Assembly: GCF_030551875.1 (NCBI RefSeq)
Contig: NZ_JAUOZU010000023.1
Span: 1 to 59,566 of the forward strand
Direction: 5' to 3'
Length of the DNA stretch: 59,566 nt
From: Fluviirhizobium alvei
Lineage (GTDB): Bacteria > Pseudomonadota > Alphaproteobacteria > Rhizobiales > Rhizobiaceae
Below are positions 23,348 to 59,566 of this stretch, piece after piece; positions within the stretch are counted from its first letter, which is position 1; each line of letters starts with the position of its first letter. Below the pieces are notes generated by a model, which saw only the letters and a list, made by a program, of their open reading frames with translations, had not been told where the DNA came from and ran no database searches. A program made the translations under genes and the position numbers.

Positions 23348-24337
23348 TCAGGACAGGGCATTGCAGACATTGCGGGCCGTGTCCTGATCGGTGATCAGGA
23401 TGGTAGCGATCTTGGCGGAGAGCATGCCGACTATGGCATTGGTCTTTTCCGGGCCGCCGCCGATGCAGATGCGGTCCTCGACAGTCATGAAATCCTCGAG
23501 CGGCATCACCAGATGGCGGTCATCGAATCCGGTGCGGATGACATGGCCCCCGGCATCGAAGAAATAACCGGAAGCAAAGCCCACCGCGCCTTTTGCGCGA
23601 TACTGTTCGAGCAGTTCATCGGTCATGACGCCGGAATCCTCAAGCAGTGTCGGGCCGCTGAGGGCGGTCACACCGAAAAGTGTCTTGGTGCAATGGCGGA
23701 GAAGGCCGAAATGCTGCGCAACGATCGGCTCCTGCATCAGGAGCGTCTTCATCTCGGGATTGGAAACGACGCCCGGCGCATGAAGGTTGACGCAGCGCGC
23801 GTTGAGCCGTGTGGCGATGTTGGATGTGCAGAGTTCAGGCGAAAAATCATAGGTCGCAATTGAACTGCCGGTGACCTGCGCGACGGTGACGCCAGGCAGG
23901 TTTGCCGGCGACAGTGCTTTTGAAAGTGCCAGAACCGTACGCCCCCAGGCAACGCCGATGACATCGTCATCCATGATCCGTTGCTCGAGAATGCGGGCGC
24001 CCAGCCGCCCAATCCGTTCGTAGAGTGGTGAATCGGTGCCGCTCGAGGGCAGCACGAAACACTCCTTGAGCCCTGCCTTCTCACAGAGTTCGATCGAAAG
24101 ATCCGCCCGTTCCAGCCGTGTCGGATCGATGGTGATCGTCACCACGCCCTCATCGCGCGCCTTTTGCAGCAAATTGAAAACGGACGCGCGGGATATGCCA
24201 AGTCGGGCAGCGATCTCGTCCTGTTTGAGACCTTCTTCATAGTAAAGCCACGCTGTCCAGAGCGGCAGATCCGATCCGAACTGCATCGGTGGAACGCGTC
24301 TTTTTGTGCCCCTTTCGGCTGGATTTTCAGGTTGCAT
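23348..24337 (-). CDS. SorC/DeoR-type sugar-binding transcriptional regulator
   Basis: A 329-residue SorC-family regulator, the family that includes EryD of the Brucella erythritol operon. The N-terminal HTH (about residues 38-60) contains LKQDEIAARLGISRASVFNL. The C-terminal sugar-phosphate-binding domain has GVAWGRTVLALSKAL and a late ICIGGGPEKTNAI segment. The ATG at 24337 has GGAGG upstream with long spacing; a second Met lies 17 codons in. It is divergent from the polyol-phosphate dehydrogenase operon, so it most likely represses that operon until a phosphorylated intermediate accumulates. Confidence 0.88.
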   Translation of the reverse strand: MQPENPAERGTKRRVPPMQFGSDLPLWTAWLYYEEGLKQDEIAARLGISRASVFNLLQKARDEGVVTITIDPTRLERADLSIELCEKAGLKECFVLPSSGTDSPLYERIGRLGARILEQRIMDDDVIGVAWGRTVLALSKALSPANLPGVTVAQVTGSSIATYDFSPELCTSNIATRLNARCVNLHAPGVVSNPEMKTLLMQEPIVAQHFGLLRHCTKTLFGVTALSGPTLLEDSGVMTDELLEQYRAKGAVGFASGYFFDAGGHVIRTGFDDRHLVMPLEDFMTVEDRICIGGGPEKTNAIVGMLSAKIATILITDQDTARNVCNALS

Positions 24338-24447
24338 GAATGCTTGGACCTCCGGATCTCAGTCCTTTTACTCTTTTTGCCCGACAAGTCCAGTTGCGAC
24401 CCGGAGAGGGTGTAATGAAGAATGCCAACATAAATTGAAAAAAGACA

Positions 24448-24476
24448 TTGACAAAAAACATAACCTCCTGAAAAAT
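24448..24476 (+). promoter_or_regulatory. Candidate sigma-70 promoter of the polyol operon
   Basis: TTGACA at 24448 is separated by 17 bp from AAAAAT at 24471 (4/6 match to TATAAT). Transcription would start about 20 nt before the dehydrogenase ATG at 24502. It lies in the AT-rich divergent region facing the SorC gene, where an operator is expected but not clear by eye. Confidence 0.35.
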
Positions 24477-24501
24477 GCCACCAACAGATCGGGAGGAGAG
24501 A

Positions 24502-25848
24502 ATGCAGAGCGCATCGAGCGCCCTTCGGCGTCCAGCCGGATGGCGTGACTGGAATGAATTGATCCGTGATGTCAGCGCGGGTGAGTGGATCAACCCTGAT
24601 ACCGGGCGGCCGGCGGAAGTGCCGTTCAAGACGGTGCTGATCGAGGACAGCCTGCGTGGTGGCGAAGCGGACCTGCTGATCAGGACCATGCCGGCGGCGC
24701 GCTATGCCGTGGTGGCCGATGCCGATACCTATGATGCGCTGGGATATGTCATTGCTCGCAGCCTCGGGGACCGGGCAATGACAGTAATCCTCGATCATCC
24801 GCATGCCGACGAAGGCTGCGTCAGCGATCTGCAGCAGAAGACACGGGGCGCTGATGCGCTCGTGGCGGTCGGCTCGGGAACGATCAACGATCTCTGCAAA
24901 TATGCGACCGCCAAGGATGGCCGCCCCTATAGCGTGTTCGGCACAGCGCCCTCGATGAACGGCTACACCTCGACCACCGCTTCGATCACGCTCAACGACG
25001 GGCTGAAGACGACCTTGCCGGCCCATGCGGCCAAAGGCGTGTTCCTCGATATCGAGGTGTCTGCCGCCGCTCCGCAATATCTGATCGCCGCCGGTTTCGG
25101 CGACAGCCTCTGCCGATCGACGGCACAGGTGGACTGGTTCTTCTCCCACATCATGCTCGGCACGCATTATGCGACATCGCCCTATGTGCTGCAGACGGCA
25201 GATGAGGAGGCGATGCTGGCACGGTCGGCGGGTCTGGGCCACCGCGACCATGAGGCGATCGGCTACCTGCACCGGATTCTGACGCTCGGCGGCTATGGCA
25301 TCAGCATTACCGGCATGAGCCATCCTGGCTCGATGGGCGAGCACCAGATTTCACACTGGATCGACAGTTTTGCCGGCGACCGGCATCCGGGTACCGTGCA
25401 TGGCCAGCAGGTCGGTGTCACCTCTGTGACCATGGCCCGGCTGCAGGAGCTGATCCTGGCGAGCGAGACCGCACCCCGGATCCGCCCGACCGAGCTCGAT
25501 GAAGCGGCGATTGCGGCGCGCTATCCGGCTGCGGCTGTCGGCTACTGTCTCGAAGCATCCCGTGCCAAGGCCATGGACCAGGCACGCGCTGACCGCTTCA
25601 ATGCCGAACTCGAGGCCCGCTGGCCGGAACTGCGCAAGACGCTGCTTGCCATGGCCGTGCCGTCAAAAGTGCTGGCCGATCATATCCGCGCTGCCGGTGG
25701 CGGTGCGACTGCTGCCGAAATCGGAATGGATCGGGGCCTTTATCGCGAGGCGCTCCGCCACGCCAAGGAATTACGCAACCGCTATTCGATGCTCGATCTT
25801 GCCGCCGACATGGGCATTCTTGAAGATTTCATCGCGGAGGAATGCTGA
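24502..25848 (+). CDS. Iron-type polyol-phosphate dehydrogenase (AraM/glycerol-1-phosphate dehydrogenase family)
   Basis: A 448-residue protein of the AraM/EgsA family, the bacterial relatives of archaeal sn-glycerol-1-phosphate dehydrogenase. The nucleotide-binding segment has AVGSGTINDLCKYA. Metal ligands are expected in AAGFGDSLC, TGMSHPGSMGEHQISH and GTVHGQQVG. Characterised members interconvert dihydroxyacetone phosphate and glycerol-1-phosphate with NAD(P)H. In a catabolic operon it may oxidise another polyol phosphate. The ATG at 24502 follows GGGAGGAGA. It is the first gene of a run extending through two kinases and a ribose-type transporter. Confidence 0.82.
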   Translation: MQSASSALRRPAGWRDWNELIRDVSAGEWINPDTGRPAEVPFKTVLIEDSLRGGEADLLIRTMPAARYAVVADADTYDALGYVIARSLGDRAMTVILDHPHADEGCVSDLQQKTRGADALVAVGSGTINDLCKYATAKDGRPYSVFGTAPSMNGYTSTTASITLNDGLKTTLPAHAAKGVFLDIEVSAAAPQYLIAAGFGDSLCRSTAQVDWFFSHIMLGTHYATSPYVLQTADEEAMLARSAGLGHRDHEAIGYLHRILTLGGYGISITGMSHPGSMGEHQISHWIDSFAGDRHPGTVHGQQVGVTSVTMARLQELILASETAPRIRPTELDEAAIAARYPAAAVGYCLEASRAKAMDQARADRFNAELEARWPELRKTLLAMAVPSKVLADHIRAAGGGATAAEIGMDRGLYREALRHAKELRNRYSMLDLAADMGILEDFIAEEC

Positions 25849-26675
25849 TGCGTCCGCTTTCCGAACTTGGCGATGCCAGCCTGGCACAGGTCCGGGTGGT
25901 CCTGACCGACATCGACGATACGCTGACCTCCGAGGGCCTGCTTCTGGCCGAGCCCTATGCGGCGCTCGAAAGGCTGGCGGATGCGGGCATTGCGGTGGTA
26001 CCGATCACCGGCCGGCCGGCCGGCTGGTGCGATATGATTGCCCGGTTCTGGCCGGTCGCCGGCGTGGTGGGCGAAAACGGTGCCTTCTACTTTGCCTATG
26101 ATCGCCAGGCCCGCAAGATGCGCCAACGTTTCTTCGCCACCGTCGAGGAGCGGCGCGAAAACCGCCGCAAGCTTGATGACCTACGCGAGCGGATCCTTGC
26201 CGAAGTGCCCGGCACCGGTATTGCTTCGGATCAGCTCTACCGAGAGGCGGATCTCGCCATAGATGTCTGCGAGGATGTCGATCCGGTGTCCGCCGAAGGT
26301 GTGGAGCGGGTGCTGGCGCTGTTTTCGGAAGCCGGCGCGGTGGCCAAGCTCTCCTCGATCCATGTCAACGGCTGGTTCGGCAACTATGACAAGCTGTCGA
26401 TGACGCGGATCTTCTGCGCCGACCAGCTGGGTCTCGATATCGATCGCGACAAGGATCGCTTCGTCTTCGTCGGCGACAGCCCCAATGACGGGCCGATGTT
26501 CGCCTTCTTCCCCAACTCCTGCGGTGTGGCCAATGTGGCGGATTTTGCCGGTGGCAGCGCACCCTTGCCAAAATTCGTGGCCGAAAAGCGTGGCGGCGAG
26601 GGCTTTGTCGAGATCGCCAACCGGCTTCTGTCGGTGCATCAGGGGCCAGTCGTGAGGGAGCGTGCCCATGGCTGA
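25848..26675 (+). CDS. HAD-superfamily phosphatase (Cof/MPGP type)
   Basis: A 275-residue class IIB HAD hydrolase. The nucleophile motif LTDIDDTLTSEG is near residues 17-28, and the late metal motif FVGDSPNDGPMF is near 206-217. Relatives dephosphorylate sugar phosphates, including mannosyl-3-phosphoglycerate and trehalose-6-phosphate. The start at 25848 overlaps the upstream stop (TGATG) and has GGAGG at good spacing. It overlaps the following glpD by a few bases. It may remove a toxic or dead-end sugar phosphate of the operon. The substrate is not readable from sequence. Confidence 0.78.
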   Translation: MRPLSELGDASLAQVRVVLTDIDDTLTSEGLLLAEPYAALERLADAGIAVVPITGRPAGWCDMIARFWPVAGVVGENGAFYFAYDRQARKMRQRFFATVEERRENRRKLDDLRERILAEVPGTGIASDQLYREADLAIDVCEDVDPVSAEGVERVLALFSEAGAVAKLSSIHVNGWFGNYDKLSMTRIFCADQLGLDIDRDKDRFVFVGDSPNDGPMFAFFPNSCGVANVADFAGGSAPLPKFVAEKRGGEGFVEIANRLLSVHQGPVVRERAHG

Positions 26676-28191
26676 GAACTACGATATCGCCATTGTCGGC
26701 GGCGGCATCAATGGTGCCGGCATCGCTCGGGACGCAGCCGGGCGCGGTTTGAAGGTCTATCTCTGCGAAAAGGGCGATCTTGGTGGCGCCACCTCGTCGG
26801 CATCGACCAAGCTCCTGCATGGCGGTCTGCGCTATCTCGAACATTATGAGTTCCGGCTGGTGCGCGAAGCCCTGCAGGAGCGCGAGCGGCTTTGGTCGAT
26901 TGCACCGCATTTCGTCCGGCCGATGCGTTTCGTGCTTCCCTATGCGCCGGGCATGCGGCCGAAATGGCTGTTGCGGCTCGGCCTGTTCATCTACGACCAT
27001 ATCGGTGGCCGCAAGCTCCTGCCGGGAACGAGCACGGTCGATTTCAGGCGTTCGCCCATCGGCGAGGGACTCGGGAGCGGTTTTGCGACCGGCTACGAAT
27101 ATTCCGATTGCTGGGTCGAGGATAACCGGCTGGTGATCATGAATGCCATGGCCGCCCGGGAACTCGGCGCCACCATCGAGACGCACACGCGGATGACACT
27201 GGCAACCCGCGACAAGAACGGCTGGACGCTTTCGGTTTCCGGTCGTGGCCGGACCAGGGATATCCGCGCCCGCATTCTCGTCAATGCCGCCGGTCCCTGG
27301 GCCAATGACGTGGTCAAGCTCGCTTCGCGGGAGCCGGCACGTGGCAAGGTGCGTCTGGTCCAGGGCAGCCATATCGTTGTGCCAAAGCTTTATCGGCACG
27401 ATCGCTGCTTCATCTTCCAGAATGCTGACGGGCGTATCATCTTCACCATCCCCTATGAGGGTGACTATACGTTGATCGGCACGACCGACCGGGATTTCAC
27501 CGGTGAACTTGAAGGGTTCGGCGCCAGCGAGGAGGAGAAGGCCTATCTTTGCGCTGCCTCCAGCCGCTATTTCGAACGACCCGTCCGCGTCGAGGAGATT
27601 GTCTGGAGCTATTCGGGTGTCCGCCCGCTTTATGACGACGGTGCCGGTGCTGCCCAGCAGGCGACGCGCGACTATGTGCTGGAAGTCAACAATGTGGATG
27701 GGATCGGAATGATTTCCGTCTTCGGCGGCAAGATCACGACCTATCGCCGGTTGGCGGAGTCGGTGCTCGGCCGGATCGTCGAATTGCTGCCCGAGGAGGA
27801 GGGCAGGGAGATTGCCGCACAGACCGGATGGACGGGTCGTGCGGCACTGCCCGGCGGCGATTTTCCGATCGACGAACGCGGTGCGCGACTGGCTGATGTC
27901 GAGAAGCGCTATCCCTTTCTCGGAGCGAAGCGGGCTGCGCGCATGTTCAGCTACTATGGCACCCGCATCGACCGGGTCCTTGCCGGTGCGCGGCGTCTGG
28001 AGGATCTCGGCCGCGACTTCGGCGCCGGGTTGACCGAGCGCGAGCTGGATTATCTCAAACGGGAAGAATGGGCCGTATCGGCTGAAGATGTGGTGTTCCG
28101 GCGCAGCAAGCTCGGCTTGCGTCTTTCTGCCGAACAGATCGCAGCCATCGACGATTATCTCGCCGGACCGAGGAAAAGCATGGCGAGCTGA
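26668..28191 (+). CDS. glpD: FAD-dependent glycerol-3-phosphate dehydrogenase
   Basis: A 507-residue flavoprotein of the DAO family. The FAD-binding motif AIVGGGINGAGIARDAAGRG lies at about residues 8-27. SASTKLLHGGLRYLEHYEF and GGKITTYRRLAES are characteristic of GlpD. It oxidises sn-glycerol-3-phosphate to dihydroxyacetone phosphate at the inner face of the membrane, reducing quinone. EryB of erythritol catabolism belongs to the same superfamily, so a polyol-phosphate substrate is possible. The ATG at 26668 follows GAGGGAG. Its start overlaps the HAD gene. Confidence 0.88.
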   Translation: MAENYDIAIVGGGINGAGIARDAAGRGLKVYLCEKGDLGGATSSASTKLLHGGLRYLEHYEFRLVREALQERERLWSIAPHFVRPMRFVLPYAPGMRPKWLLRLGLFIYDHIGGRKLLPGTSTVDFRRSPIGEGLGSGFATGYEYSDCWVEDNRLVIMNAMAARELGATIETHTRMTLATRDKNGWTLSVSGRGRTRDIRARILVNAAGPWANDVVKLASREPARGKVRLVQGSHIVVPKLYRHDRCFIFQNADGRIIFTIPYEGDYTLIGTTDRDFTGELEGFGASEEEKAYLCAASSRYFERPVRVEEIVWSYSGVRPLYDDGAGAAQQATRDYVLEVNNVDGIGMISVFGGKITTYRRLAESVLGRIVELLPEEEGREIAAQTGWTGRAALPGGDFPIDERGARLADVEKRYPFLGAKRAARMFSYYGTRIDRVLAGARRLEDLGRDFGAGLTERELDYLKREEWAVSAEDVVFRRSKLGLRLSAEQIAAIDDYLAGPRKSMAS

Positions 28192-28251: not shown

Positions 28252-29730
28252 ATGTATCTGGGAATTGATCTCGGCACATCAGGTGTGAAAGCGATCCTGA
28301 TCGACGAAGAGCAGCAGCTCGTGGGCGAGGAGAGCTCGCGGCCGCTCGATGTTTCCCGGCCGCACCGCGGCTGGTCGGAACAGGACCCCGAACTCTGGTG
28401 GCAGGCGGTAACCGAAGCCGTCGACCGGCTGGCCTTGGCCTTTCCGGTCCAGATGGCGGCGGTGCGCGGCATCGGACTGTCCGGACAGATGTATGGTGCT
28501 ACGTGTCTCGATGAAAGCGACCGCCCGCTCAGGCCCGCCATCCTGTGGAACGATACCCGCACCGAGCGCCAATGCGCAGCACTGAAGCAAGTGATGCCGG
28601 ATATCGGCAGGATCGCAGGCCGCAATCCCAGCCTGGGCGTGACCGCACCCAAGCTGATGTGGTTGCGCGATCATGAACCGGACCTTTTTTCGCGGATCCG
28701 CACGGTGCTGCTGCCGAAAGATTATGTGCGGCTGAAACTCTCCGGCGACAAAGTGTCCGACCTGGCCGATTCGAGCGGCACAATGTGGGTGGATGTTGGG
28801 GCGCGCGACTGGTCCGAACCATTGCTTGCCGCCTCGTCCATGGATGTCGGCCAGATGCCGCGGCTCTGTGAAGGCACAGAGGCGACGGGTCGTCTGCGTG
28901 CCGAACTATGCCGGCGCTGGGGAATGGCGGTCGCTCCCGTCATTGCCGGTGGCGGTGGCGATAATGCCTGCGGCGCCTGCGGAACCGGTGTCATCAAGGA
29001 CGGCATGGGTACGGTTTCGCTCGGCACATCCGGCGTTCTCTTCGTCGCCAATGGCGTAGCGCGTCCCAGCATGGTTCATTCCATCGAGACGCTCTGCCAT
29101 TCCGTACCTGGCGTATGGCACCAGATGTCGGTGATCCTGTCGGCTACCTCCTGCCTGAACTGGCTAGCGGGGCTGCTCAAGCGGCCCGCAAGCGAACTGG
29201 TGGCCGAACTGGGAACCGACCTTGGCGCGCCGGCACCAGTGGTGTTCGTGCCCTTTCTCGACGGATGCTGGTCGCCGCATGCCGATGCCTCCATTCGCGG
29301 TGCCTTCGTCGGGCTCAACCATAGCAGCGATGACGCGGTCCTGACCCGTGCGGTTCTGCAGGGGGTAGCCTTTGCCATGCGGGAATGCGCCGATGCCTTC
29401 CGCTCGACCGGGACGAGGATCGACAATCTGCTCGCCATCGGAGGCGGCTCGCGCAGTGAATTATGGCTCAAGATCATGGCCACAATCCTCGGTGTTGAAC
29501 TGCAAGTCCCGGCATCGAGCCAGCTCGGCGCCGCCTTCGGAGCGGCGAGGCTGGCCATCATCGCAGCGGAGAATGCCGCGCCGGAATCGATCTTGGTGCC
29601 GCCACCGATCCGCAACTCGATTTCCCCGGATAGCGCTCGGGAGGAGAGCTATCAGGAGAATTACCAGACCTGGCTTTCGGTCATTCCGGATGTCCGCAAG
29701 GCTTCGGCCGCGCTCGCAAGGGCAAGCTGA
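28252..29730 (+). CDS. xylB: FGGY kinase, xylulokinase (XylB) type
   Basis: A 492-residue FGGY carbohydrate kinase. The N-terminal phosphate loop is GIDLGTSGVKAILID. The XylB-type stretch LSGQMYGATCLDES and RPAILWNDTRTE follow at about residues 80-107, and the late adenine-site motif AIGGGSRSELWLKIMA is near 400. The closest recognisable family is D-xylulose kinase, though related kinases act on other pentuloses or polyols. GGGAGG lies just before the ATG. It is 60 bp after glpD and followed by two stem-loops before the binding-protein gene. Confidence 0.82.
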   Translation: MYLGIDLGTSGVKAILIDEEQQLVGEESSRPLDVSRPHRGWSEQDPELWWQAVTEAVDRLALAFPVQMAAVRGIGLSGQMYGATCLDESDRPLRPAILWNDTRTERQCAALKQVMPDIGRIAGRNPSLGVTAPKLMWLRDHEPDLFSRIRTVLLPKDYVRLKLSGDKVSDLADSSGTMWVDVGARDWSEPLLAASSMDVGQMPRLCEGTEATGRLRAELCRRWGMAVAPVIAGGGGDNACGACGTGVIKDGMGTVSLGTSGVLFVANGVARPSMVHSIETLCHSVPGVWHQMSVILSATSCLNWLAGLLKRPASELVAELGTDLGAPAPVVFVPFLDGCWSPHADASIRGAFVGLNHSSDDAVLTRAVLQGVAFAMRECADAFRSTGTRIDNLLAIGGGSRSELWLKIMATILGVELQVPASSQLGAAFGAARLAIIAAENAAPESILVPPPIRNSISPDSAREESYQENYQTWLSVIPDVRKASAALARAS

Positions 29731-29798: not shown

Positions 29799-29832
29799 TC
29801 CTATGGAAATATGCTCTTTTGGGAGGACGATA

Positions 29833-30843
29833 ATGAACATAAACGACCTGAACTTCAAGCTTTCACGCCGAACGCTGATGGGCGGCGCGGCACTTTTGGC
29901 CGCAACCCAGATGCTCGGTGCGAGCAATGCCCGTGCCCAGAACGCCGATCGTAAATTTGCCGCCGCGCTCGGCTGGACGACCTATGATTCCGGTCGCCAT
30001 CTGCAGGACGGTTTCACGGCTGCCGTGCAGGAACTCGGCGGCAACCTGACGACCACCGACGCCGGTTTCGACGCCAAGACGCAGACTGACCAGATCGATT
30101 CGCTGATTGCCTCCAAGCCCGATGCGCTGTTCATCACCCCTGCCGATGCCGTGGCGATTGCGCCGGCCGTGCAGCGCGCCATCACCGCCGGCATTCCCGT
30201 TTTCTGTGCCGACAGCGCGGTGCCGGGCGTTGCCGTCAACACGACTTCGATGTCCAACAATTTCGGCATGGGCGCCTATTCCTGCGAGCACATCGCAAAG
30301 AAGCTTGGTGGCAAGGGCAAGATTGCCCGAGTGCTCCTGCCTCAGAACGAAAGCTGGGACCAGCGGACGCTCGGCATGGAATGGACGCTGCGTCGTTACC
30401 CCGACATCAAGATCGTGGCCGACTGGGCGTTTGCGCTGGCGGGCAACGTTACGCCACGCCAGGCGGTCGACAATATTCTCACCGCCAATCCCGATATCGA
30501 TGCCATCTGGTGCGCCTGGGACGGTGCGGCGGTGGAAGGCACTCTGGCGGCGCGCGCTGCCAACAAGCCGGACCTGATCATCACCGGCATTGACGGTGGT
30601 TCGCAGGCCTTCACCTACATCGCCGGCCCCTCGCAGCTCAAGCTTTCCATGGCGCAGAGTTTCTATGAGATGGCCTATCTCTCGGTTTTCTATGCGCAAC
30701 AGCATCTCTCCGGCAAGAAGACGCCCCGACTTGTCATCACCCCCACCTATGCCGTTGACGAGTCCATGCTGAAGGCCGGGATTCCGGACGATTTCGATGT
30801 GCCCGGACGGGCCGCCGAACTGGGCTGGGTCCGCGCCGTCTGA
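29833..30843 (+). CDS. Periplasmic sugar-binding protein of ribose-type ABC importer
   Basis: A 336-residue substrate-binding protein of the RbsB-like (Peripla_BP_4) class. The N terminus has a Tat-like RRTLMGGAALLAATQM signal with cleavage near NARA-QNA (about residue 35). The mature part shows DQIDSLIASKPDALFITPAD (about 94-113) and ITGIDGGSQAF in the second lobe. It should capture a sugar or polyol for the ATPase and permeases that follow. GGGAGGA precedes the ATG. Strong stem-loops on both sides of the gene suggest a stabilised, over-represented message. Confidence 0.9.
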   Translation: MNINDLNFKLSRRTLMGGAALLAATQMLGASNARAQNADRKFAAALGWTTYDSGRHLQDGFTAAVQELGGNLTTTDAGFDAKTQTDQIDSLIASKPDALFITPADAVAIAPAVQRAITAGIPVFCADSAVPGVAVNTTSMSNNFGMGAYSCEHIAKKLGGKGKIARVLLPQNESWDQRTLGMEWTLRRYPDIKIVADWAFALAGNVTPRQAVDNILTANPDIDAIWCAWDGAAVEGTLAARAANKPDLIITGIDGGSQAFTYIAGPSQLKLSMAQSFYEMAYLSVFYAQQHLSGKKTPRLVITPTYAVDESMLKAGIPDDFDVPGRAAELGWVRAV

Positions 30844-30850
30844 CCGGAGC

Positions 30851-30881: not shown

Positions 30882-30915
30882 AACTGCAACCATAATACTG
30901 TCTGGAGGTCCGGAT

Positions 30916-34431: not shown

Positions 34432-34433
34432 CA

Positions 34434-51768: not shown

Positions 51769-51786
51769 TTGCCGGGGAGAGAGAAA

Positions 51787-52817: not shown

Positions 52818-54038
52818 ATGTCACTGCATGTATTGGAGAAGCTCGCGGCCACGAACCCGGACTGCGAGATCTGGTGGGACTCCTCACCGCTGGTTTATGC
52901 CGGCTGGAAGGCAGAAGTCCTCGCCAACGCGCCGGCTGAAAAGCGGGCCGATTGGGACGCACAGCTGACCCGGCTGTTCGATCCGGCGACGATCCAGGCC
53001 GAGGGCACAATGGGCTTCCGTGGTGTCACCACAAATCCGCCCTTGTCGTTGCAGGCAATCCAGGCCGATCCCGCCTTCTGGGCGGAAGAAATCCGCACCA
53101 TGGCCTCGCGCATGGATCCCTCCGATATCGAGGGCATCTACTGGGCCATCTATCTCGATGTCGTTCGCCGTGGCGCTGAAATGGTGCGCCCCGTCTTCGA
53201 CAAGTCGGGTGGCAAATATGGCTATGTCTCCGGCCAGGTCGATCCGCGTTTCGTGACCGAAGGCGAGCGCATGCTGGCCCAGGGTCTCGAGTTGGCCGCG
53301 ATTGCGCCGAATGTCATGGTCAAGATCCCCGGCTCGAAAGAAGGCTATGAGGTGATCGAGGAACTGACCGCGCGGGGCATATCCACCAACAACACGACCT
53401 CATTCACCGTGCCGCAATATGTGGCCTGCATGAATGCCGTGTCGCGCGGTCTGGAACGCGCAAAGGCCAATGGCGTCGATCTCAGTCGCTGGCGCTCTGT
53501 GATCACCCACATGTCGGCTCGGCTCGGTAATGTCGGCGACCTCAAGGTGCAGGCCGAAGCAAGAGGGCTGGCGCTTTCGCCTGAAGAGATCATGTATGGC
53601 GAACTGGCCGTGCTCAAGCGTGCCTATCGTTATGGCAAGGAAATCGGCCATCCCAGCAAGATGCTGCAATGCTCGATGCGGGTATTCGATGACGCCCCGG
53701 GCGGCAAGGCATCGAGCTGGCACATTTCCAAGATTGCCGGCGGTGACTTCGTCTATACCTGCCCGCCCGGCTACATCGCCCAGCTTATGAAGGCCGAAGA
53801 CCGGCTCGAACCCTTTGACGCCAATGCCATCAACGAGGATGCGCCGGCGGAAGTGATCGAGAAGCTGATGCGCATTCCCTATTTCCGGCAGGCCTATGAA
53901 TTCGACGGCATGAAGCCGGAAGAATTCTGCCGCTTCGGAGCCTTTTCGTCGACGGCGACCGAATTTGCCGCCGCCACACGCCGCACGGTCGATTTCGTCG
54001 CCCAGTCGGTCGAATCCATGCTGCGTCGCGTGGCCTGA
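52818..54038 (+). CDS. Divergent transaldolase-family protein
   Basis: A 406-residue TIM-barrel protein, longer than usual transaldolases (about 220-370). The family core is visible: RGVTTNPPLSLQA (about residues 69-80), the Schiff-base lysine K169 in NVMVKIPGS, and STNNTTSFTVPQ (about 189-200). It should transfer a dihydroxyacetone unit between sugar phosphates or act as a fructose-6-phosphate aldolase-like enzyme. The start at 52818 follows CAGGAAAAC; a GTG overlapping the E1 beta stop is an alternative. Unusually, it lies between E1 beta and E2 of the dehydrogenase complex. Confidence 0.82.
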   Translation: MSLHVLEKLAATNPDCEIWWDSSPLVYAGWKAEVLANAPAEKRADWDAQLTRLFDPATIQAEGTMGFRGVTTNPPLSLQAIQADPAFWAEEIRTMASRMDPSDIEGIYWAIYLDVVRRGAEMVRPVFDKSGGKYGYVSGQVDPRFVTEGERMLAQGLELAAIAPNVMVKIPGSKEGYEVIEELTARGISTNNTTSFTVPQYVACMNAVSRGLERAKANGVDLSRWRSVITHMSARLGNVGDLKVQAEARGLALSPEEIMYGELAVLKRAYRYGKEIGHPSKMLQCSMRVFDDAPGGKASSWHISKIAGGDFVYTCPPGYIAQLMKAEDRLEPFDANAINEDAPAEVIEKLMRIPYFRQAYEFDGMKPEEFCRFGAFSSTATEFAAATRRTVDFVAQSVESMLRRVA

Positions 54039-54050: not shown

Positions 54051-55379
54051 ATGGCACGTCCCATCCTGATGCCGCAGGTCGGCCAGGACCTTACCGAAGG
54101 CAAGGTTACTGCGATCCTCGTCAAAGTCGGCGACAAGGTGAAGAAGGGCGACATCGTCGCCGAAGTGGAATCCGAAAAGGCGGTGTTCGAAGTCGAATGT
54201 TTCGAAACCGGTACGATCATCGATATCGCCTACAAGGTGGGCGACATGGCCGTTGTCCTCGAACCGCTGATGATGGTGGGCGAGGAAGGCGAAGTGTACG
54301 AAAAGGCCGCCGCCCAGGCTCCGGCTGTCGCACCGCCTGCCGTAGTCGAAGTCGCTGCGCCTGCGGTTTTGGCTACAAAGTCGGTCCCCGCCCAGGTCGA
54401 GGCACTTGCCCCGGCAACGGCACTTGCGGTTGGTGGCGGCTCCTCTCCGCTGGCACGCCGTCTTGCTGTCCAGGCGGGGATCGACATTACCAGCGTCGCT
54501 GGCAGTGGTCCGCGTGGCGCTGTCGTCAAGCGCGATATCGAAGCCTTCCAGAAGAATGCGCCCAAGGGTTCGGTGCTGGCTTTCACCGGCGCCTCGCGCG
54601 GTGTCGCCGCCAAGGCGGGTGACAGCGTGATCAAGAGCCTGCAGGCAGGCACGGGCGATCCGGTCCTGTTCATCCACGGTTTCGGCAGCGAGCTTTCCTC
54701 CTGGCGGCCTTTCGTCTCCCAGCTCGGTATCGCAAATACGGTGCTGGCGGTCGATCTGCCGGCCCATGGGGCAGCTGCAACCGGGAGTGCCGGGGATTTC
54801 GATGCCATTGTGCAGTCCGTCCGCTCGGCCATGGCGGCTGAGGGGCTCGAACGGGTGCATCTGGTCGGCCATTCGCTGGGTGCGGCCGTTGCCGCGGCCA
54901 TCGCAGGCGGTGGCGATCTCGATGTCCGGTCGCTGACGCTGATTGCGCCGGCCGGCCTCGGACCGAGAATCAATGGTGACTTTGTCTCAGGCTTCCTCTC
55001 CTCGTCTTCCGAACCGGCACTGAAAGCCTGGCTCGACCTGCTGGTGGCCGATCCGGCCAAACTGCCCGGTGTGCTGGTGCGCGCCACGCTGTCTGCCCGC
55101 GAGGCAGGCCCTGTGGTCGAAAATCAGGCGCGGCTGGCGGCTGGCGTCTTTGCCGGCTGCACCCAGCTGTTTTCGGTGCGCGAGGCGCTGGCCCGTTACG
55201 AGGGTCCGGCCCGGATCATCGTTGGCCAGCAGGACAGGATCGTGCCGGCGGACCATGCCGAGGCCGCCCCGGCTCAGGTCGCGGTCAACCGGCTCCCTGG
55301 TGTCGGCCATCTGCCGCAGCTCGAAGCCGCTCCGCTCGTCGGCCGGCTTGTGGCCCAAACCATCCGAAGCGCCGGCTGA
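54051..55379 (+). CDS. AcoC-type E2: lipoyl domain, E3/E1-binding domain, alpha/beta hydrolase
   Basis: A 442-residue E2 subunit. Residues 1-80 form a lipoyl domain with lipoyl-lysine K43 (VESEKAVFE). Residues 130-166 form a peripheral subunit-binding domain (SSPLARRLAVQAGI). A linker rich in Ala/Pro/Val joins them. The C terminus (about 200-440) is an alpha/beta hydrolase with a complete triad: S275 (GHSLGA), D395 and H420. A classical acyltransferase domain is absent. This layout matches AcoC of acetoin dehydrogenase. The ATG starts 12 bp after the transaldolase stop, with AGGAGG upstream. A terminator follows. Confidence 0.9.
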   Translation: MARPILMPQVGQDLTEGKVTAILVKVGDKVKKGDIVAEVESEKAVFEVECFETGTIIDIAYKVGDMAVVLEPLMMVGEEGEVYEKAAAQAPAVAPPAVVEVAAPAVLATKSVPAQVEALAPATALAVGGGSSPLARRLAVQAGIDITSVAGSGPRGAVVKRDIEAFQKNAPKGSVLAFTGASRGVAAKAGDSVIKSLQAGTGDPVLFIHGFGSELSSWRPFVSQLGIANTVLAVDLPAHGAAATGSAGDFDAIVQSVRSAMAAEGLERVHLVGHSLGAAVAAAIAGGGDLDVRSLTLIAPAGLGPRINGDFVSGFLSSSSEPALKAWLDLLVADPAKLPGVLVRATLSAREAGPVVENQARLAAGVFAGCTQLFSVREALARYEGPARIIVGQQDRIVPADHAEAAPAQVAVNRLPGVGHLPQLEAAPLVGRLVAQTIRSAG

Positions 55380-55476: not shown

Positions 55477-56889
55477 ATGTCGGCCTATGACGTCATCATT
55501 GTCGGTGCCGGGCCGGGCGGCTATGTCGCGGCCATCCGCGCCGCGCAACTCGGCCTTCGGGTCGCAATTGTCGAACGCGATCATCTCGGCGGCATCTGCC
55601 TCAACTGGGGCTGCATTCCCACCAAATCGCTCCTGCATTCTGCCGAAATTCACACCTCGCTCCGGCATGCGGCAACTTTCGGGGTGACGGCAGGGCAGAC
55701 GGACATCAGCCTTGTCGATATGGTCAAGCGTTCGCGCCAGACAGCGGGACAGCTCAATGCCGGCGTGCAGTTCCTGCTCAAGAAGAACAAGGTCGATCTG
55801 ATCTGGGGCCAGGCATTTGTAACGGCGCCAGGTTGTCTTCAGATCTCGCCTAGCCAGACCCCGGCACCGTCAGGGGCACTGGGTGCGGGCGCTTATGAAG
55901 CGGCCAATATCATCATTGCCACCGGCGCCCGCGAACGTCCCTTGCCGGGGCTGCAACCCGATGGCAAACGCGTCTGGTCCTATCGCCATGCCATGACGGC
56001 GGAAACATTGCCGGCCTCGCTCGCTATCATCGGTGCCGGCGCCATCGGGGTCGAGTTCGCCAGCTTTTACCAGTCTCTGGGCGCGAATGTGACGCTGGTC
56101 GAGCGGCTGGACCGTATCCTGCCGCAGGAAGATGCCGAAATCAGCGATGCGATGGCAAAACTGCTCAAGAAGCGCGGCATCGGCATTTCCACGGGCTGCT
56201 CGGTCGGCAATGTCGAGATCGGGCAGTCCGCAGTGAGGCTTCAACTGGACGAAGCGGATGGAACATCGCGGATCATCGAATGCGAAACGGTCCTCTGTGC
56301 TGCTGGCGTCATTGCCAACAGCGAAGGGCTTGGGCTGGAGACTGTTGGTGTTGCCTTGAAAAATGGTGTGATCACGACGGATCCCGCAGGCCGGACCTCG
56401 GTTGCGGGCATCTGGGCCATCGGCGATGTCGCGGGCCCGCCGATGCTGGCCCACAAGGCCGAGCATGAGGGTATCCGCGCGGTGGAAGCCATTGCCGGCC
56501 TTGGCAGCGACCATACAAAGCCCATCATTCCCGGCGCGGTCTTTGCCACCCCGCAAGTGGCTTCCGTGGGCCTCACTGAAGCGGCAGCGCTCGCAGCCGG
56601 CAAGGAAATTACCATCGGCCGCTTCACTTTCCGTGGCAATGGCAAGGCGGTGACGCTGGGCGAGACGGATGGTTTCGTGAAGACCGTGTTCGATGCTGTC
56701 ACAGACCGGTTGCTGGGCGCGCATATGCTCGGACCCAATGTCAGCGAAATGGTGGCGCTCTTTTCCTTCGCGCTGTCGGTCGGTGCCACGCGCGACCAGC
56801 TGGCCCACACAGTGTTTCCACATCCGACCCTGTCTGAAGCTATGCACGAAGCGGTGCTGGCGGCCGGCGGCCAGGCCATCCATGCCTGA
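55477..56889 (+). CDS. lpdA: Dihydrolipoyl dehydrogenase (E3)
   Basis: A 470-residue flavoprotein disulfide reductase that reoxidises dihydrolipoyl-E2 with NAD+. The FAD motif IVGAGPGGYVAAIRAAQLG is near residues 8-26, the redox disulfide C41-C46 lies in GGICLNWGCIPTKS, the NAD motif IIGAGAIGVEFASFY is near 184-198 and the His-Glu dyad segment FPHPTLSEAMHEAV is near the C terminus. An AAAGGAAGG site precedes the ATG. It probably serves the adjacent E2. It heads a unit with a phosphatase, EryC- and EryH-like genes and a transketolase. Confidence 0.95.
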   Translation: MSAYDVIIVGAGPGGYVAAIRAAQLGLRVAIVERDHLGGICLNWGCIPTKSLLHSAEIHTSLRHAATFGVTAGQTDISLVDMVKRSRQTAGQLNAGVQFLLKKNKVDLIWGQAFVTAPGCLQISPSQTPAPSGALGAGAYEAANIIIATGARERPLPGLQPDGKRVWSYRHAMTAETLPASLAIIGAGAIGVEFASFYQSLGANVTLVERLDRILPQEDAEISDAMAKLLKKRGIGISTGCSVGNVEIGQSAVRLQLDEADGTSRIIECETVLCAAGVIANSEGLGLETVGVALKNGVITTDPAGRTSVAGIWAIGDVAGPPMLAHKAEHEGIRAVEAIAGLGSDHTKPIIPGAVFATPQVASVGLTEAAALAAGKEITIGRFTFRGNGKAVTLGETDGFVKTVFDAVTDRLLGAHMLGPNVSEMVALFSFALSVGATRDQLAHTVFPHPTLSEAMHEAVLAAGGQAIHA

Positions 56890-56899: not shown

Positions 56900-57592
56900 A
56901 TGAATGTCACATCCGCCACCATCATCTTCGATCTCGACGGCACGCTTGTCGACAGTGTGCCCGATCTCGCCAATGCGCTCGACCGGCTGATGGTCGAAGA
57001 GGGTCTGCCGACGATCGGTCGGGCGCGCGCGCGCGACCTCATCGGTCACGGCATCGGTGCCTTTATCAAATCCGCCTTCTCCTTTCATAGGGTGCCGCTC
57101 GACGAGACGCGGCAGAGTGAACTGGTCAGACGCTTCAAGTCGATCTATGCCGAGGCGCTGGCCGATGAAACGATCGTCTATCCTCTTGTTCCCGAAGTGC
57201 TGTCGGGATTTCGGGACCATGGGTTCCGGATGGGCGTCTGCACCAACAAGGACGAAATCTTTGCGCGCGCGATCCTCGCGCAACTGGGTCTCGAGAGTTA
57301 TTTTTCCGTGGTCGCGGGGCCGGATACGTTTGGCTTCACCAAGCCCGATCCCCGCCATCTGACCGCGACCATCGCCGCTGTCGGCGGCGATGGTCCCACG
57401 ATCTATGTCGGCGATTCCGATGTTGATGCGAGGACTGCGATTGCTGCGCATGTACCGATGGTCATTCTCCGGCATGGCTATTGCAAAGTACCGCATGAGT
57501 CATTGGGCGCCGATCTGCTGATCGACGGATTTGCCGAGTTGCCGGCTGCTGTGGCGACACTTGTTGCCGAAGTCGAGCGCTGCCGGGCATGA
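56900..57592 (+). CDS. HAD phosphatase, phosphoglycolate phosphatase-like
   Basis: A 230-residue class IA HAD hydrolase. The nucleophile motif IFDLDGTLVDSV is at residues 9-20, FRMGVCTNKDE near 111-121, GFTKPDPRHL near 149-158 and YVGDSDVDARTA near 172-183. It resembles Gph phosphatases, which clear 2-phosphoglycolate. Inside this operon it may act on a related C2-C4 phosphate. The start at 56900 lies 10 bp after the E3 stop; the upstream in-frame extension lies inside lpdA and is rejected. Confidence 0.85.
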   Translation: MNVTSATIIFDLDGTLVDSVPDLANALDRLMVEEGLPTIGRARARDLIGHGIGAFIKSAFSFHRVPLDETRQSELVRRFKSIYAEALADETIVYPLVPEVLSGFRDHGFRMGVCTNKDEIFARAILAQLGLESYFSVVAGPDTFGFTKPDPRHLTATIAAVGGDGPTIYVGDSDVDARTAIAAHVPMVILRHGYCKVPHESLGADLLIDGFAELPAAVATLVAEVERCRA

Positions 57593-57635: not shown

Positions 57636-58568
57636 ATGCCCCTGAGACTATCGCTGAACACCAATCCGCTGATCAACCGCATTGCGGATGAGGACGAGTT
57701 GATCGAGACCATTGGAAACAAGATCAGGATCGGCTATGTCCAGCTGACGCCGGAATTCATCAATCCGTCCTGGCCGGCTTCAACCATCCGCAAGCGCGTG
57801 CGCGCATTCCGGGCGGCAATGGAGCGCACCGGGGTGAGGATCACCTCGGTTATGACCAGCACCTATGGGCGGCTCAATCACTTCGGCCATCCCGACGAGG
57901 GCGTGCGCGCCTATTATCTCGACTGGTTCAAGACGCTCGCCGATATTGCTGGCGACCTGGGTGCGGAAAGCATCGGCTCGCAATTCGCTGTCTTCACCAA
58001 GAGCGATTACGACGATCCCATCCGCCGCGATGCACTGATCGAAACCGTTATGGATTGCTGGCGCGCGGTGGCCGAGCATGGCAAGGCGGCGGGGCTCGAT
58101 TACCTGTTCTGGGAGCCGATGTCGGTGGGTCGCGAATTCGGCCATACAATTGCCGAATGCCGCCGGTTCGACAAAAGGGTCAACTCGGCCGGTCTGGCGC
58201 TGCCCTTCAGGATGATCGTCGATATCGACCATGGGGATGTCACTTCAGACAATCCTGCCGACACCGATCCCTATGCCTGGGCGGCGGCCTTTCCGCAGGA
58301 ATCACCGATCATCCACGTCAAGCAATCATCGATGAACAAGGGCGGTCACTGGCCCTTCACGGCACAGCACAACAAGGATGGCCGCATCCAGCCGGAGAAG
58401 CTGATCCGCACGGTCAAGGATGCTGGCGGCACCGACAATGAAATCTGCATGGAACTGTCTTTCCGCGAACGCGAGCCGACCGACAGCCATGTTGTGGATA
58501 TGCTGCGGGAATCGGTCGCCTATTGGGAGCCGCATATCGATACCGGTTTCAACGGGTTCAAGGGCTGA
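57636..58568 (+). CDS. eryC: EryC-like tetrulose-phosphate isomerase/racemase (TIM barrel)
   Basis: A 310-residue sugar-phosphate isomerase/epimerase (AP endonuclease 2 fold). Features recalling Brucella EryC include the N-terminal SLNTNPLINRIADEDELI, YGRLNHFGHPDEGVRAYY, LFWEPMSVGREFGHTIAE and MIVDIDHGDVTSDNP; the Glu, Asp and His residues in the last two supply the metal site. EryC takes part in isomerising tetrulose phosphate during conversion of erythritol to erythrose-4-phosphate. The ATG at 57636 follows GGAGGAGG. It sits between the phosphatase and the EryH-like gene. Exact substrate stereochemistry is not readable. Confidence 0.78.
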   Translation: MPLRLSLNTNPLINRIADEDELIETIGNKIRIGYVQLTPEFINPSWPASTIRKRVRAFRAAMERTGVRITSVMTSTYGRLNHFGHPDEGVRAYYLDWFKTLADIAGDLGAESIGSQFAVFTKSDYDDPIRRDALIETVMDCWRAVAEHGKAAGLDYLFWEPMSVGREFGHTIAECRRFDKRVNSAGLALPFRMIVDIDHGDVTSDNPADTDPYAWAAAFPQESPIIHVKQSSMNKGGHWPFTAQHNKDGRIQPEKLIRTVKDAGGTDNEICMELSFREREPTDSHVVDMLRESVAYWEPHIDTGFNGFKG

Positions 58569-58608
58569 GGCAACGCCCCCTCGCGGGCGATAATGACGGG
58601 AGAGCAAT

Positions 58609-59373
58609 ATGGCCAAGACGGTCTGGGTCGGCACGAGCTGGAAGATGAACAAGGTGCTTTCGGAGGCGCTGGCCTATGCCGACGGGCTGAAGGCAGCCGA
58701 TAGCCGCCGCCATGAGCGTGTCCGGCGCTTCATCGTTCCGTCCTATACGGTACTGCGCGAGGTCAAGGCGCGGCTGGCGGGCACCAGCGTTATGGTTGGC
58801 GCGCAGAACATGCACTGGGACGAAGGCGGCGCCTGGACCGGCGAAGTCTCGCCATCGATGCTGACTGATTGCGGGCTGGACATGGTCGAGCTTGGCCATA
58901 GCGAACGCCGCGAATTTTTCAACGAGACCGACGAGACAGTCGGCAAGAAGACCGAGGCCGCCGTCCGCCACGGGCTGGTGCCGATCGTCTGCATCGGCGA
59001 AACGCTGGCCCAGCGGCAGGCCGGAGAAGCTGACGAGGTGCTGCGTCGGCAGGTCGAGGTGGCACTCTCCTTCCTCAAGCCCGAACAGTACAAGGCCGAG
59101 ATCCTGATCGCCTACGAGCCGGTCTGGGCCATCGGCGTCAACGGCATTCCCGCCACCATCGATTACGCCAATGATCGCCACGAAAAGATCGCAGCGGTGG
59201 CTGCCAACATGCTCGGCCGCCGCGTGCCGATCCTCTATGGCGGCTCGGTCAATCCGGACAATTGTGCCGAACTGGTGTCGCAGCCAGATATTGACGGTCT
59301 CTTCATCGGCCGCTCGGCCTGGACCGCCGAAGGCTATCTCGACATTCTCGACCGGGTCGCAAGGGCGATCTGA
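58609..59373 (+). CDS. eryH: EryH-like triose-phosphate isomerase paralogue
   Basis: A 254-residue TIM barrel. Catalytic K12, H97 (LGHSERRE) and E170 (AYEPVWAIG) are present, but the Asn of the usual GNWKMN motif is Ser10 (GTSWKMNK) and the phosphate loop reads AIGVNGIPA rather than AIGTG. These changes match the tetrulose-4-phosphate isomerases (EryH/TpiA2/TpiB) of erythritol catabolism and distinguish it from the canonical enzyme at 36962-37735. GGGAGAG precedes the ATG. It follows eryC by 40 bp and precedes a transketolase. Confidence 0.85.
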
Positions 59374-59399
59374 TCCCGTCTCAGACAAAGGACATTTTC

Positions 59400-59566
59400 A
59401 TGCAGCCGTCGCTCCACAATCGCATGGCGAATGCGATCCGTTTCCTTTCCATGGACGCCGTTGAGAAGGCGAATTCGGGCCATCCGGGTCTTCCGATGGG
59501 GGCGGCCGATATTGCCACGGTGCTGTTTACGCAGTTCCTGAAGTTCGATCCGAAGGCGCCGCTGTG
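59400..59566 (+). CDS. tkt: Transketolase, N-terminal fragment (cut by window end)
   Basis: The first 55 codons of a transketolase are visible, with [20 protein letters not shown] and [15 protein letters not shown], the conserved thiamine-diphosphate/His segment. The gene runs off the window. It follows the EryH-like gene by 26 bp in the same unit. It could consume erythrose-4-phosphate or exchange two-carbon units with the upstream transaldolase products. Confidence 0.9.

What the first reader, a model, noticed from the sequence alone, without database searches (positions are those of the whole stretch)
23348..59566. Very large polyol/sugar-phosphate catabolic locus with duplicated functions
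One 36-kb stretch holds three different FGGY kinases, two GlpD-type dehydrogenases, an AraM-type dehydrogenase, two triose-phosphate isomerases, class II aldolase, transaldolase, transketolase, EryC, three HAD phosphatases, two complete ABC importers and two phosphosugar regulators. EryA/EryB/EryC/EryH-like parts point to C4 polyols, but the dehydrogenase complex, AraM-type enzyme and transaldolase are not part of the known erythritol route. This may be a new pathway, or several merged ones.
Basis: partly seen in the sequence, partly recalled or inferred. Interest (0 to 1): 0.72.

Follow-up and report, generated by a model that had tools for sequence, protein, structure and literature searches.

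The report
Polyol locus with own dehydrogenase complex
A 36-kb bacterial gene cluster joins several sugar-alcohol uptake and breakdown modules to a conserved, apparently undescribed set of enzymes that probably splits a phosphorylated sugar with its own pyruvate-dehydrogenase-like machine, which would be a new way for bacteria to break down small sugars.

Summary
In detail: 31 genes at 23.3-59.4 kb plus the start of a transketolase cut by the contig end. All 31 lie in the same order on a Shinella plasmid, so this is not chance clustering. Relatives show at least three merged modules: (A) SorC-AraM-HAD-GlpD-FGGY; (B1) a GlpSTPQUV-type importer with an FGGY kinase and an EryB-like dehydrogenase; (B2) aldolase-CbbY-RpiR-E1ab-transaldolase-like-E2-E3-Gph, with EryC and EryH in Rhizobiales. 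B2 is conserved on its own: E1b and E2 flank the transaldolase-like gene in 25 of 25 non-sphingomonad alphaproteobacterial loci, and its E1s form one clade apart from seven reference E1s. A conserved operator-like site links B2, fba-CbbY and B1, but was not found in A. EryC and EryH look orthologous, but EryA and RpiB are missing, so it is no described erythritol locus. CbbY is the XuBP-phosphatase type; the transaldolase-like protein has the Gln of fructose-6-phosphate aldolase. Best reading (inferred, 0.42): the complex oxidatively cleaves a ketose phosphate (D-erythrulose-4-P and/or Xu5P) to a C2-CoA and an aldose phosphate; aldolase, CbbY and transketolase rebuild and use Xu5P. No activity was tested.

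The parts
23348..24337 (-). Module A: SorC/DeoR-type sugar-binding regulator
   Evidence: NF053881 170 bits, below cut-off 420; Shinella orthologue annotated sugar-binding transcriptional regulator
24475..25848 (+). Module A: AraM / glycerol-1-phosphate-dehydrogenase-like
   Evidence: NF002022 128 bits, below cut-off 413; Pfam Fe-ADH_2
25842..26675 (+). Module A: HAD-IIB phosphatase
   Evidence: TIGR01484 52 bits, cut-off 41.8
26662..28191 (+). Module A: GlpD-type dehydrogenase, 48% to R. johnstonii EryB
   Evidence: NF008899 703 bits, cut-off 360
28252..29730 (+). Module A: xylulokinase XylB
   Evidence: TIGR01312 504 bits, cut-off 380
29803..34431 (+). Module A: CUT2 (ribose-type) importer: SBP, ATPase, two permeases
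   Evidence: annotated the same way in Shinella
34428..35957 (+). Module A: FGGY kinase, below all family cut-offs
35994..36962 (-). lipoyl synthase LipA; 96.4% nt over 938 bp to a second copy on contig C5
   Evidence: Pfam LIAS_N + Radical_SAM
36962..37762 (-). TIM1, canonical triose-phosphate isomerase
   Evidence: TIGR00419 184 bits, cut-off 130.6
37759..39468 (-). Module B1: EryB-like polyol-phosphate dehydrogenase (DAO + DAO_C), below GlpD cut-offs
   Evidence: 59% / 52% to Phyllobacterium / Pleomorphomonas
39595..39616 (.). operator-like site between eryB-like and FGGY3
   Evidence: matrix score 20.4; maxima of 20 shuffles 4.3-15.2
39674..41275 (+). Module B1: FGGY kinase (FGGY3)
   Evidence: 62% / 54% to Phyllobacterium / Pleomorphomonas
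41300..45203 (+). Module B1: two UgpC-like ATPases and two permeases, GlpSTPQUV-type importer
45206..45607 (+). Module B1: DUF2160 membrane protein
   Evidence: 75% to Shinella DUF2160; Pfam PF09928 on the Shinella protein
45689..47410 (+). Module B1: substrate-binding protein, 93% to a second copy in this genome, 89% to the SBP of the R. etli glp operon
47564..47585 (.). operator-like site upstream of fba
   Evidence: score 12.5, not significant alone (4 of 20 shuffle maxima are higher); position shared by 7 of 7 relatives scanned
47665..48555 (+). Module B2: class II ketose-bisphosphate aldolase
   Evidence: TIGR00167 233 bits, cut-off 215.6
48560..49258 (+). Module B2: CbbY-type XuBP phosphatase (start by Shinella homology)
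   Evidence: Shinella orthologue: 297 bits to Arabidopsis CbbYA, 179 to RsCbbY, next structure 53
49432..50337 (-). Module B2: RpiR regulator (HTH_6 + SIS)
50508..50529 (.). second operator-like site in the rpiR-E1a gap
   Evidence: score 17.9
50693..50714 (.). operator-like site upstream of E1a
   Evidence: conserved in relatives
50782..51768 (+). Module B2: E1 alpha
   Evidence: TIGR03182 324 bits, below cut-off 394; own clade 100/100; start by Shinella homology
51769..52791 (+). Module B2: E1 beta
   Evidence: NF006667 404 bits, cut-off 321; own clade 100/98
52818..54038 (+). Module B2: transaldolase-like protein with Glu-to-Gln change
   Evidence: Pfam TAL_FSA; model and fold search
54051..55379 (+). 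Module B2: E2, lipoyl + alpha/beta-hydrolase (AcoC) type
   Evidence: NF011457 321 bits, cut-off 307
55477..56889 (+). Module B2: E3 dihydrolipoyl dehydrogenase
   Evidence: TIGR01350 521 bits, cut-off 409
56906..57592 (+). Module B2: Gph-like phosphoglycolate phosphatase
   Evidence: closest structures phosphoglycolate phosphatases, 91 bits; Shinella orthologue annotated gph
57636..58568 (+). EryC, 62% to R. johnstonii EryC (start by Shinella homology)
58609..59373 (+). TIM2 = EryH/TpiB type, 68% to the R. johnstonii protein
59400..59566 (+). transketolase, start only, cut by the contig end

Best explanation
The right half (36.0-59.6 kb) is one predicted RpiR-controlled pathway. A short polyol enters through a GlpSTPQUV-type importer, is phosphorylated by FGGY3 and oxidised by the EryB-like enzyme; EryC and EryH then give a 2-ketose phosphate with a free C1 hydroxyl, most likely D-erythrulose-4-P. 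A dedicated acetoin-dehydrogenase-type E1-E2-E3 complex, with a lipA copy of its own, cleaves that ketose phosphate oxidatively between C2 and C3: the C2 unit leaves as glycolyl-CoA (or glycolate), the rest as glycolaldehyde phosphate. Class II aldolase joins glycolaldehyde phosphate to DHAP as xylulose-1,5-bisphosphate, CbbY turns it into xylulose-5-P, and the transaldolase-like enzyme does a parallel DHA-type aldol reaction. Xylulose-5-P goes to transketolase or back to the complex; TIM1 recycles GAP to DHAP; Gph clears phosphoglycolate. The left half (module A) is a separately regulated polyol module that adds xylulose-5-P through XylB. Shown: gene content, sequence relationship, synteny, clade structure, conserved residues, a conserved DNA motif. 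Inferred: every substrate, the reaction of the complex, the direction of flux, and binding of RpiR to the motif.
For: E1b upstream and E2 downstream of the TAL-like gene in 25 of 25 non-sphingomonad alphaproteobacterial loci. E1s form one clade (100/98, 100/100). E2 passes the acetoin-DH E2 cut-off, so cleavage of an alpha-hydroxyketone is likelier than of a 2-oxo acid. lipA lies in the EryB-like operon here and in Shinella. EryC 62% and EryH 68%. CbbY identity; XuBP is made from DHAP + glycolaldehyde phosphate and CbbY is specific for it (PMC10212915, passages). Gph and a transketolase start. TAL-like Glu-to-Gln in 57 of 57 rows, not all independent, the fructose-6-P aldolase residue (PMC13259622, passages). 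An operator-like site joins E1, fba-CbbY and the eryB-like/FGGY3 region. In Phyllobacterium a thiamine-diphosphate enzyme stands beside FGGY3 and the EryB-like gene. Mutant E. coli PDH E1 raises DXP in vivo (PMC3424233, passages).
Against: No substrate or activity is known. The importer is indistinguishable from glycerol importers, so the polyol may be glycerol or one shared with it. RpiB, absent here, is elsewhere in 5 of 6 checked genomes whose locus has EryC and in 12 of 16 genomes checked, so the normal E4P exit is open to most carriers. Form II lacks EryH and, in all but one locus (L051), EryC, so D-erythrulose-4-P cannot be the only entry. The role of the TAL-like enzyme is not fixed; the FSA Tyr position is Met here and the fold search ranks transaldolases first. 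The C2 fate is unproven: GlcD-like below cut-off, no Gcl over cut-off. The E1 tree has seven reference rows and long branches.
Confidence: 0.42

Rival explanations
1. The complex cleaves a 1-deoxy or branched-sugar-derived ketose (phosphate), for example DXP or a relative, and releases acetyl-CoA, not glycolyl-CoA; it keeps the acetoin-like methyl-ketone chemistry.
For: Related E1s (45% alpha, 52% beta) sit in S. meliloti Rm41 beside a protein 696 bits from 3UPL, with lipA and a sugar importer (that 3UPL is the DXR-like enzyme DRL is recalled); an Aminobacter set has a gene of the same product name. E2 is AcoC-like.
Against: CbbY, Gph, EryC and EryH have no role in such a route; TAL-cluster E1s are a clade apart from those sets; the Rm41 E2 is not AcoC-type.
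Confidence: 0.18
2. Several ordinary polyol routes are merged: tetrulose phosphates leave through normal pentose-phosphate reactions (aldolase, transaldolase, transketolase), and the complex is an extra pyruvate or acetoin dehydrogenase that oxidises the end product.
For: Modules A, B1 and B2 occur apart; transketolase is present or adjacent in 10 of 25 alphaproteobacterial loci; RpiB is elsewhere in most carriers.
Against: The E1 clade is specific to TAL clusters and far from own PDH; TAL lies between E1b and E2 in 25 of 25; this genome lacks RpiB; the TAL-like protein lacks the transaldolase Glu.
Confidence: 0.22
3. The aldolase is an erythrulose-1-phosphate formaldehyde lyase: tetrulose-1-P gives DHAP + formaldehyde, and the rest deals with the C1 and C3 products.
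For: Such a cleavage has been suggested for erythritol catabolism in S. meliloti (PMC10733421, passages); EryC and a class II aldolase are both present.
Against: fba is next to CbbY, whose known substrate is a bisphosphate; no C1 gene among the locus genes; FbaA did not serve as the synthase in that paper's selection.
Confidence: 0.08
4. Chance clustering of unrelated sugar genes.
For: Modules occur apart in other species.
Against: 31 of 31 genes collinear with a Shinella plasmid; four Shinella plasmids carry tal, eryB-like, araM and FGGY3; shared operator-like sites.
Confidence: 0.03

Closest known systems
Erythritol/polyol (ery) loci of Rhizobiales (PMC3599248; R. johnstonii 3841 pRL12, L095)
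   Same: EryC (62%) and EryH/TpiB (68%); FGGY kinase, GlpD-type dehydrogenase, CUT2 importer and SorC-type regulator types are shared
   Different: No EryA (24-28%), no EryD (29%), no DeoR-type EryR among the genes, no RpiB; adds E1-E2-E3, TAL-like, CbbY, Gph and LipA, none of which the paper's passages name
Acetoin dehydrogenase complex (AcoABC-L)
   Same: E2 of the lipoyl + alpha/beta-hydrolase type over the family cut-off
   Different: E1s form a separate clade, TAL-like gene inserted, sugar genes around it; no butanediol/acetoin dehydrogenase gene as in the Paracoccus set
Rhizobium glycerol importer GlpSTPQUV
   Same: Two ATPases, two permeases, DUF2160, SBP 89-93%
   Different: Kinase and dehydrogenase partners are FGGY3 and EryB-like, not GlpK and GlpD
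CbbY (XuBP phosphatase)
   Same: Close match to both solved XuBP phosphatases
   Different: No Rubisco or phosphoribulokinase among the locus genes; XuBP would be an aldolase product here
Transaldolase / fructose-6-phosphate aldolase
   Same: Schiff-base Lys, Asn and Thr kept; transaldolase fold
   Different: Own about-400-residue subfamily with Gln for Glu and Thr-His-Met at the TalB 176-178 positions (TalB numbering recalled)

Membership tests
Erythritol (ery) locus | EryA orthologue | tested here: not met
   FGGYs of the locus 24-28% to R. johnstonii EryA; best in genome 32%, on contig C42
Erythritol (ery) locus | EryB orthologue | tested here: inconclusive
   GlpD-type at 26662 is 48% to EryB, but another GlpD copy in the genome is 53%; EryB-like at 37759 is 28%
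Erythritol (ery) locus | EryC and TpiB/EryH | tested here: met
   62% and 68%; only one EryC in the genome
Erythritol (ery) locus | EryD regulator | tested here: not met
   SorC-type regulator 29%
Erythritol (ery) locus | RpiB in an eryR-tpiB-rpiB module | tested here: not met
   PF02502 not found in the genome; control rings in 7 of 14
Acetoin dehydrogenase complex | AcoC-type E2 | tested here: met
   321 bits, cut-off 307
Acetoin dehydrogenase complex | E1 grouping with acetoin E1 | tested here: inconclusive
   TAL-cluster E1s are their own clade; one acetoin reference on a long branch, next to them in the E1b tree with weak support 83/57
Acetoin dehydrogenase complex | Activity on acetoin | not testable with these tools
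   needs enzyme assay
Transaldolase | Catalytic Lys, Asn and Thr | tested here: met
   Lys 56 of 57, Asn and Thr 57 of 57
Transaldolase | Acid-base Glu (TalB E96, numbering recalled) | tested here: not met
   Gln in 57 of 57; Glu in 25 of 26 other TALs, 1 not covered
Fructose-6-phosphate aldolase | Gln and Tyr of the catalytic-water triad | tested here: not met
   Gln present, Tyr position is Met in 56 of 56 covered rows
CbbY XuBP phosphatase | Sequence closest to the proven XuBP phosphatases | tested here: met
   297 and 179 bits against 53 for the next structure
GlpSTPQUV glycerol importer | Two ATPases, DUF2160, GlpV-like SBP | tested here: met
GlpSTPQUV glycerol importer | Linked GlpK and GlpD | tested here: not met
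   FGGY3 87.5 bits against the GlpK cut-off 590; EryB-like 247 bits against the GlpD cut-off 360

The most novel reading that the evidence does not exclude
Alphaproteobacteria have a 'ketose-phosphate dehydrogenase complex': a lipoyl multienzyme that oxidatively splits 2-ketose phosphates to glycolyl-CoA and an aldose phosphate, a CoA-linked analogue of phosphoketolase, coupled to an aldolase/CbbY loop in which XuBP is a normal intermediate and not a Rubisco by-product. It takes C4 and C5 ketose phosphates from different kinases and importers under one RpiR regulator. Related complexes beside a DXR-like enzyme would do the same to DXP.
Probability: 0.33. Interest if true: 0.85.

Novelty: new variant of a known kind. 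Interest (0 to 1): 0.62.

Why it matters
If right, it adds an oxidative C2-cleaving route for tetrulose and pentulose phosphates, would explain operons now annotated as acetoin dehydrogenase plus transaldolase (25 named alphaproteobacterial loci here), and gives CbbY a job outside the Calvin cycle. A glycolyl-CoA-forming, sugar-cleaving complex would also interest designers of carbon-conserving pathways. Even if the chemistry differs, the conserved set (E1-TAL-E2, fba-CbbY, importer and kinase) is an uncharacterised pathway that can be tested directly.

Tried and rejected
Considered and set aside: a plain erythritol locus (no EryA, EryD or RpiB); a plain glycerol locus (kinase and dehydrogenase are not GlpK or GlpD although the importer is glycerol-type); RpiB absence as general proof of a new exit (5 of 6 checked EryC-bearing relatives have RpiB elsewhere); a ligand change in the FGGY-linked SBPs (only 4 columns separate four such rows from two GlpK-type rows); a Gcl route (no Gcl over cut-off). 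tRNA and Rfam scans gave nothing. Paper searches: searches found none; others listed papers that did not describe this set, judged by titles and abstract starts, and for one by passages.

The shuffles for the operator kept only single-base composition in 1-kb blocks; scores above 12 also occur inside genes in L047, L055, L056, L072, L108 and L110; the fba site of the window is not significant alone; L056 has fba but no site upstream; L039 was not scanned.


Full report
Observation. The window is all of contig C16 (59,566 b) of a 5.2-Mb genome scored 99.75% complete. The transketolase is only begun (ATG 59400; 71% over 49 residues) before the contig ends; a near-copy of that start (97.3% over 148 nt) lies at the edge of contig C2, so a repeat probably broke the assembly. 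The first 23 kb are other matters.

Is it one thing? On Shinella sp. H4-D48 plasmid p1 all 31 genes match in the same order and relative orientation, 54-96% protein identity. Four Shinella plasmids carry tal, eryB-like, araM and FGGY3; a second one, read over the left 19 genes, shows the same order. So the assembly of genes is conserved, not chance.

Modules. (A) AraM, HAD-IIB and GlpD are annotated in a row, with an FGGY kinase nearby, in R. leguminosarum CP090116; in S. meliloti CP090106 an FGGY kinase, a SorC-type regulator, AraM and HAD-IIB are listed together (that gene table is incomplete); both have other importers. (B1) The two-ATPase importer with its small membrane protein, FGGY3 and the EryB-like dehydrogenase occur together in Phyllobacterium zundukense and Pleomorphomonas sp. 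SM30 without the rest. The importer is of the Rhizobium glycerol type: its SBP is 93% identical to a second copy in this genome and 89% to that of the R. etli glpD-ABC-glpK operon; PMC7912956 (passages) describes the R. leguminosarum glycerol transporter. Four FGGY-linked and two GlpK-type SBPs differ consistently at only four columns. (B2) fba, CbbY, RpiR, E1a, E1b, TAL-like, E2, E3 and Gph.

B2 across genomes. The genome scan with the TAL-like protein gave 54 loci. E1b lies just upstream and E2 just downstream in 25 of 25 non-sphingomonad alphaproteobacterial loci, and in 0 of 14 sphingomonad, 0 of 1 gammaproteobacterial and 0 of 14 deltaproteobacterial-type loci. Two forms appear. Form I (mostly Rhizobiales) has EryC in 10 loci, EryH in 7 of these 10 (some cut by contig ends), and transketolase in 2. 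Form II (Rhodobacterales, Rhodospirillales and others) has an importer and FGGY kinase, often a VOC protein, and transketolase after E2 in 8 loci; no EryH, and EryC in one (L051). RpiB was seen in none of the 54 loci. In the Exilibacterium MAG the gene follows fba, CbbY-like, DhaL and DhaK, with a sugar-acid-dehydratase-like gene upstream, which points to dihydroxyacetone chemistry.

Individual enzymes. EryC and EryH are 62% and 68% identical to those of the R. johnstonii 3841 locus; the other TIM is canonical. CbbY: the Shinella orthologue scores 297 bits to Arabidopsis CbbYA and 179 to R. sphaeroides CbbY, against 53 for the next structure. PMC10212915 (passages) states that CbbY is highly specific for XuBP and that XuBP was made by aldol addition of DHAP to glycolaldehyde phosphate. 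The TAL-like protein keeps Lys179 (56 of 57 rows; one reads E), Asn and Thr, but has Gln in 57 of 57 where 25 of 26 ordinary TALs have Glu (one not covered), and Thr-His-Met in 56 of 56 covered rows. PMC13259622 (passages) reports that Gln59 belongs to the catalytic-water network of fructose-6-phosphate aldolase and that swapping residues that organise this water interconverts aldolase and transaldolase; its Tyr131 partner is Met here. The model (pLDDT 93) matches transaldolases first (3r5e).

The complex. E2 passes the acetoin-dehydrogenase E2 cut-off. E1 alpha (25 rows) and beta (27 rows) of the TAL clusters form one clade each (100/100 and 100/98) apart from seven reference rows: own PDH, own C10, a second G115 set, an acetoin set, a Priestia set and two sets next to a DXR-like-type gene, with 40 and 37 signature columns. 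References are few and branches long. Two outside facts make ketose-phosphate cleavage plausible: E. coli PDH E1 mutants raise DXP about 20-fold in vivo (PMC3424233, passages), and in S. meliloti Rm41 such a complex sits beside a close relative of 3UPL with Lpd, LipA and a sugar importer (that 3UPL is the DXR-like enzyme DRL is recalled); its E2, however, is not AcoC-type. In Phyllobacterium an acetolactate-synthase-superfamily enzyme, below the cut-offs shown, stands next to FGGY3.

Regulation. A 22-bp site lies upstream of E1a: of 23 rpiR-E1a regions, 16 have it within 5 mismatches and 18 within 8. A matrix from those 18 (the window's own included) finds further window copies at 39595 between eryB-like and FGGY3 (20.4), 50508 (17.9) and 47564 upstream of fba (12.5); maxima of 20 block shuffles were 4.3-15.2. 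The fba site is 102-128 bp upstream in 7 of 7 relatives scanned (L036, L037, L038, L041, L042, L043, L045), absent in L056. Form-II-type SBP genes have one in 5 of 6 loci scanned (L043, L055, L056, L108, L110; not L106). Shinella has weaker copies at the same two places (14.0 and 10.3). None of the top eight window hits lies in module A. Hits above 12 inside genes of some relatives show the background. I read this as one predicted RpiR regulon for B1+B2 and separate control of A.

Mechanism and doubt. The pieces fit a pathway in which a ketose phosphate (in Form I probably D-erythrulose-4-P) is cleaved oxidatively to a C2-CoA and glycolaldehyde phosphate, and aldolase plus CbbY rebuild xylulose-5-P for transketolase or a second cleavage. 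Against certainty: no substrate is known; RpiB, absent here, is elsewhere in 5 of 6 checked genomes with an EryC-bearing locus and in 12 of 16 genomes checked; the importer looks like a glycerol importer; the fate of a C2 product is open (GlcD-like 461 bits, cut-off 568; no Gcl over cut-off). Another aldolase role, erythrulose-1-P formaldehyde lyase, is raised by PMC10733421 (passages).

Known or not. PMC3599248 (abstract, first part of Results, passages) surveys 19 erythritol loci with EryA, EryB and EryD throughout and says the eryR-tpiB-rpiB module is presumably in all erythritol users; this locus lacks EryA, EryD and RpiB by the tests here. My searches of the held open library showed no description of this set; subscription papers are not covered. 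I call it a new variant of a known kind (polyol locus plus acetoin-type complex), with a real chance that it is a new pathway.

Noticed in passing
L120:1-11815 (S. meliloti Rm41 pRM41A); L119:4607-9341 (Aminobacter): Sugar importer, SorC-type regulator, a protein 696 bits from 3UPL (recalled as the DXR-like enzyme DRL), E1 alpha, E1 beta, E2, Lpd and LipA in a row in Rm41; Aminobacter has a like-named oxidoreductase with E1 alpha, beta and an AcoC-type E2. May be catabolism of methylerythritol or deoxyxylulose through DXP cleavage.
   Followed up: partly
window 35994-36962, 45341-47410, 59400-59566: lipA (96.4% nt), the importer SBP (87.6% nt) and the transketolase start (97.3% nt over 148) have close second copies elsewhere in the genome; for lipA the copy is much closer than the Shinella locus orthologue (83%), which suggests recent duplication or gene conversion.
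   Followed up: partly
L093:12337-14112 (Phyllobacterium zundukense): A 591-residue acetolactate-synthase-superfamily enzyme, below the family cut-offs shown, stands between FGGY3 and the importer; possible simpler substitute for the E1-E2-E3 complex.
   Followed up: partly
L079:9992-12315 (Syntrophaceae MAG): The TAL-like gene is followed by a HisC-like aminotransferase gene, with an ABC importer upstream; a different role in deltaproteobacterial-type genomes.
   Followed up: no
L058-L067, L069-L071, L073: Sphingomonad relatives keep the TAL-like gene without any other gene of the E1 cluster nearby (0 of 14).
   Followed up: no
L072:2266-9698 (Exilibacterium MAG): PHB-depolymerase-like, sugar-acid-dehydratase-like, fba, CbbY-like, DhaL, DhaK and TAL-like in a row: perhaps a glycolaldehyde/dihydroxyacetone assimilation module.
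   Followed up: partly
window 1-23329: LysR, PrpF and glyoxalase-type genes, a NorQ/COX1/VWA set, NnrS, an FGE-sulfatase-domain protein and a chemotaxis receptor next to the locus.
   Followed up: no
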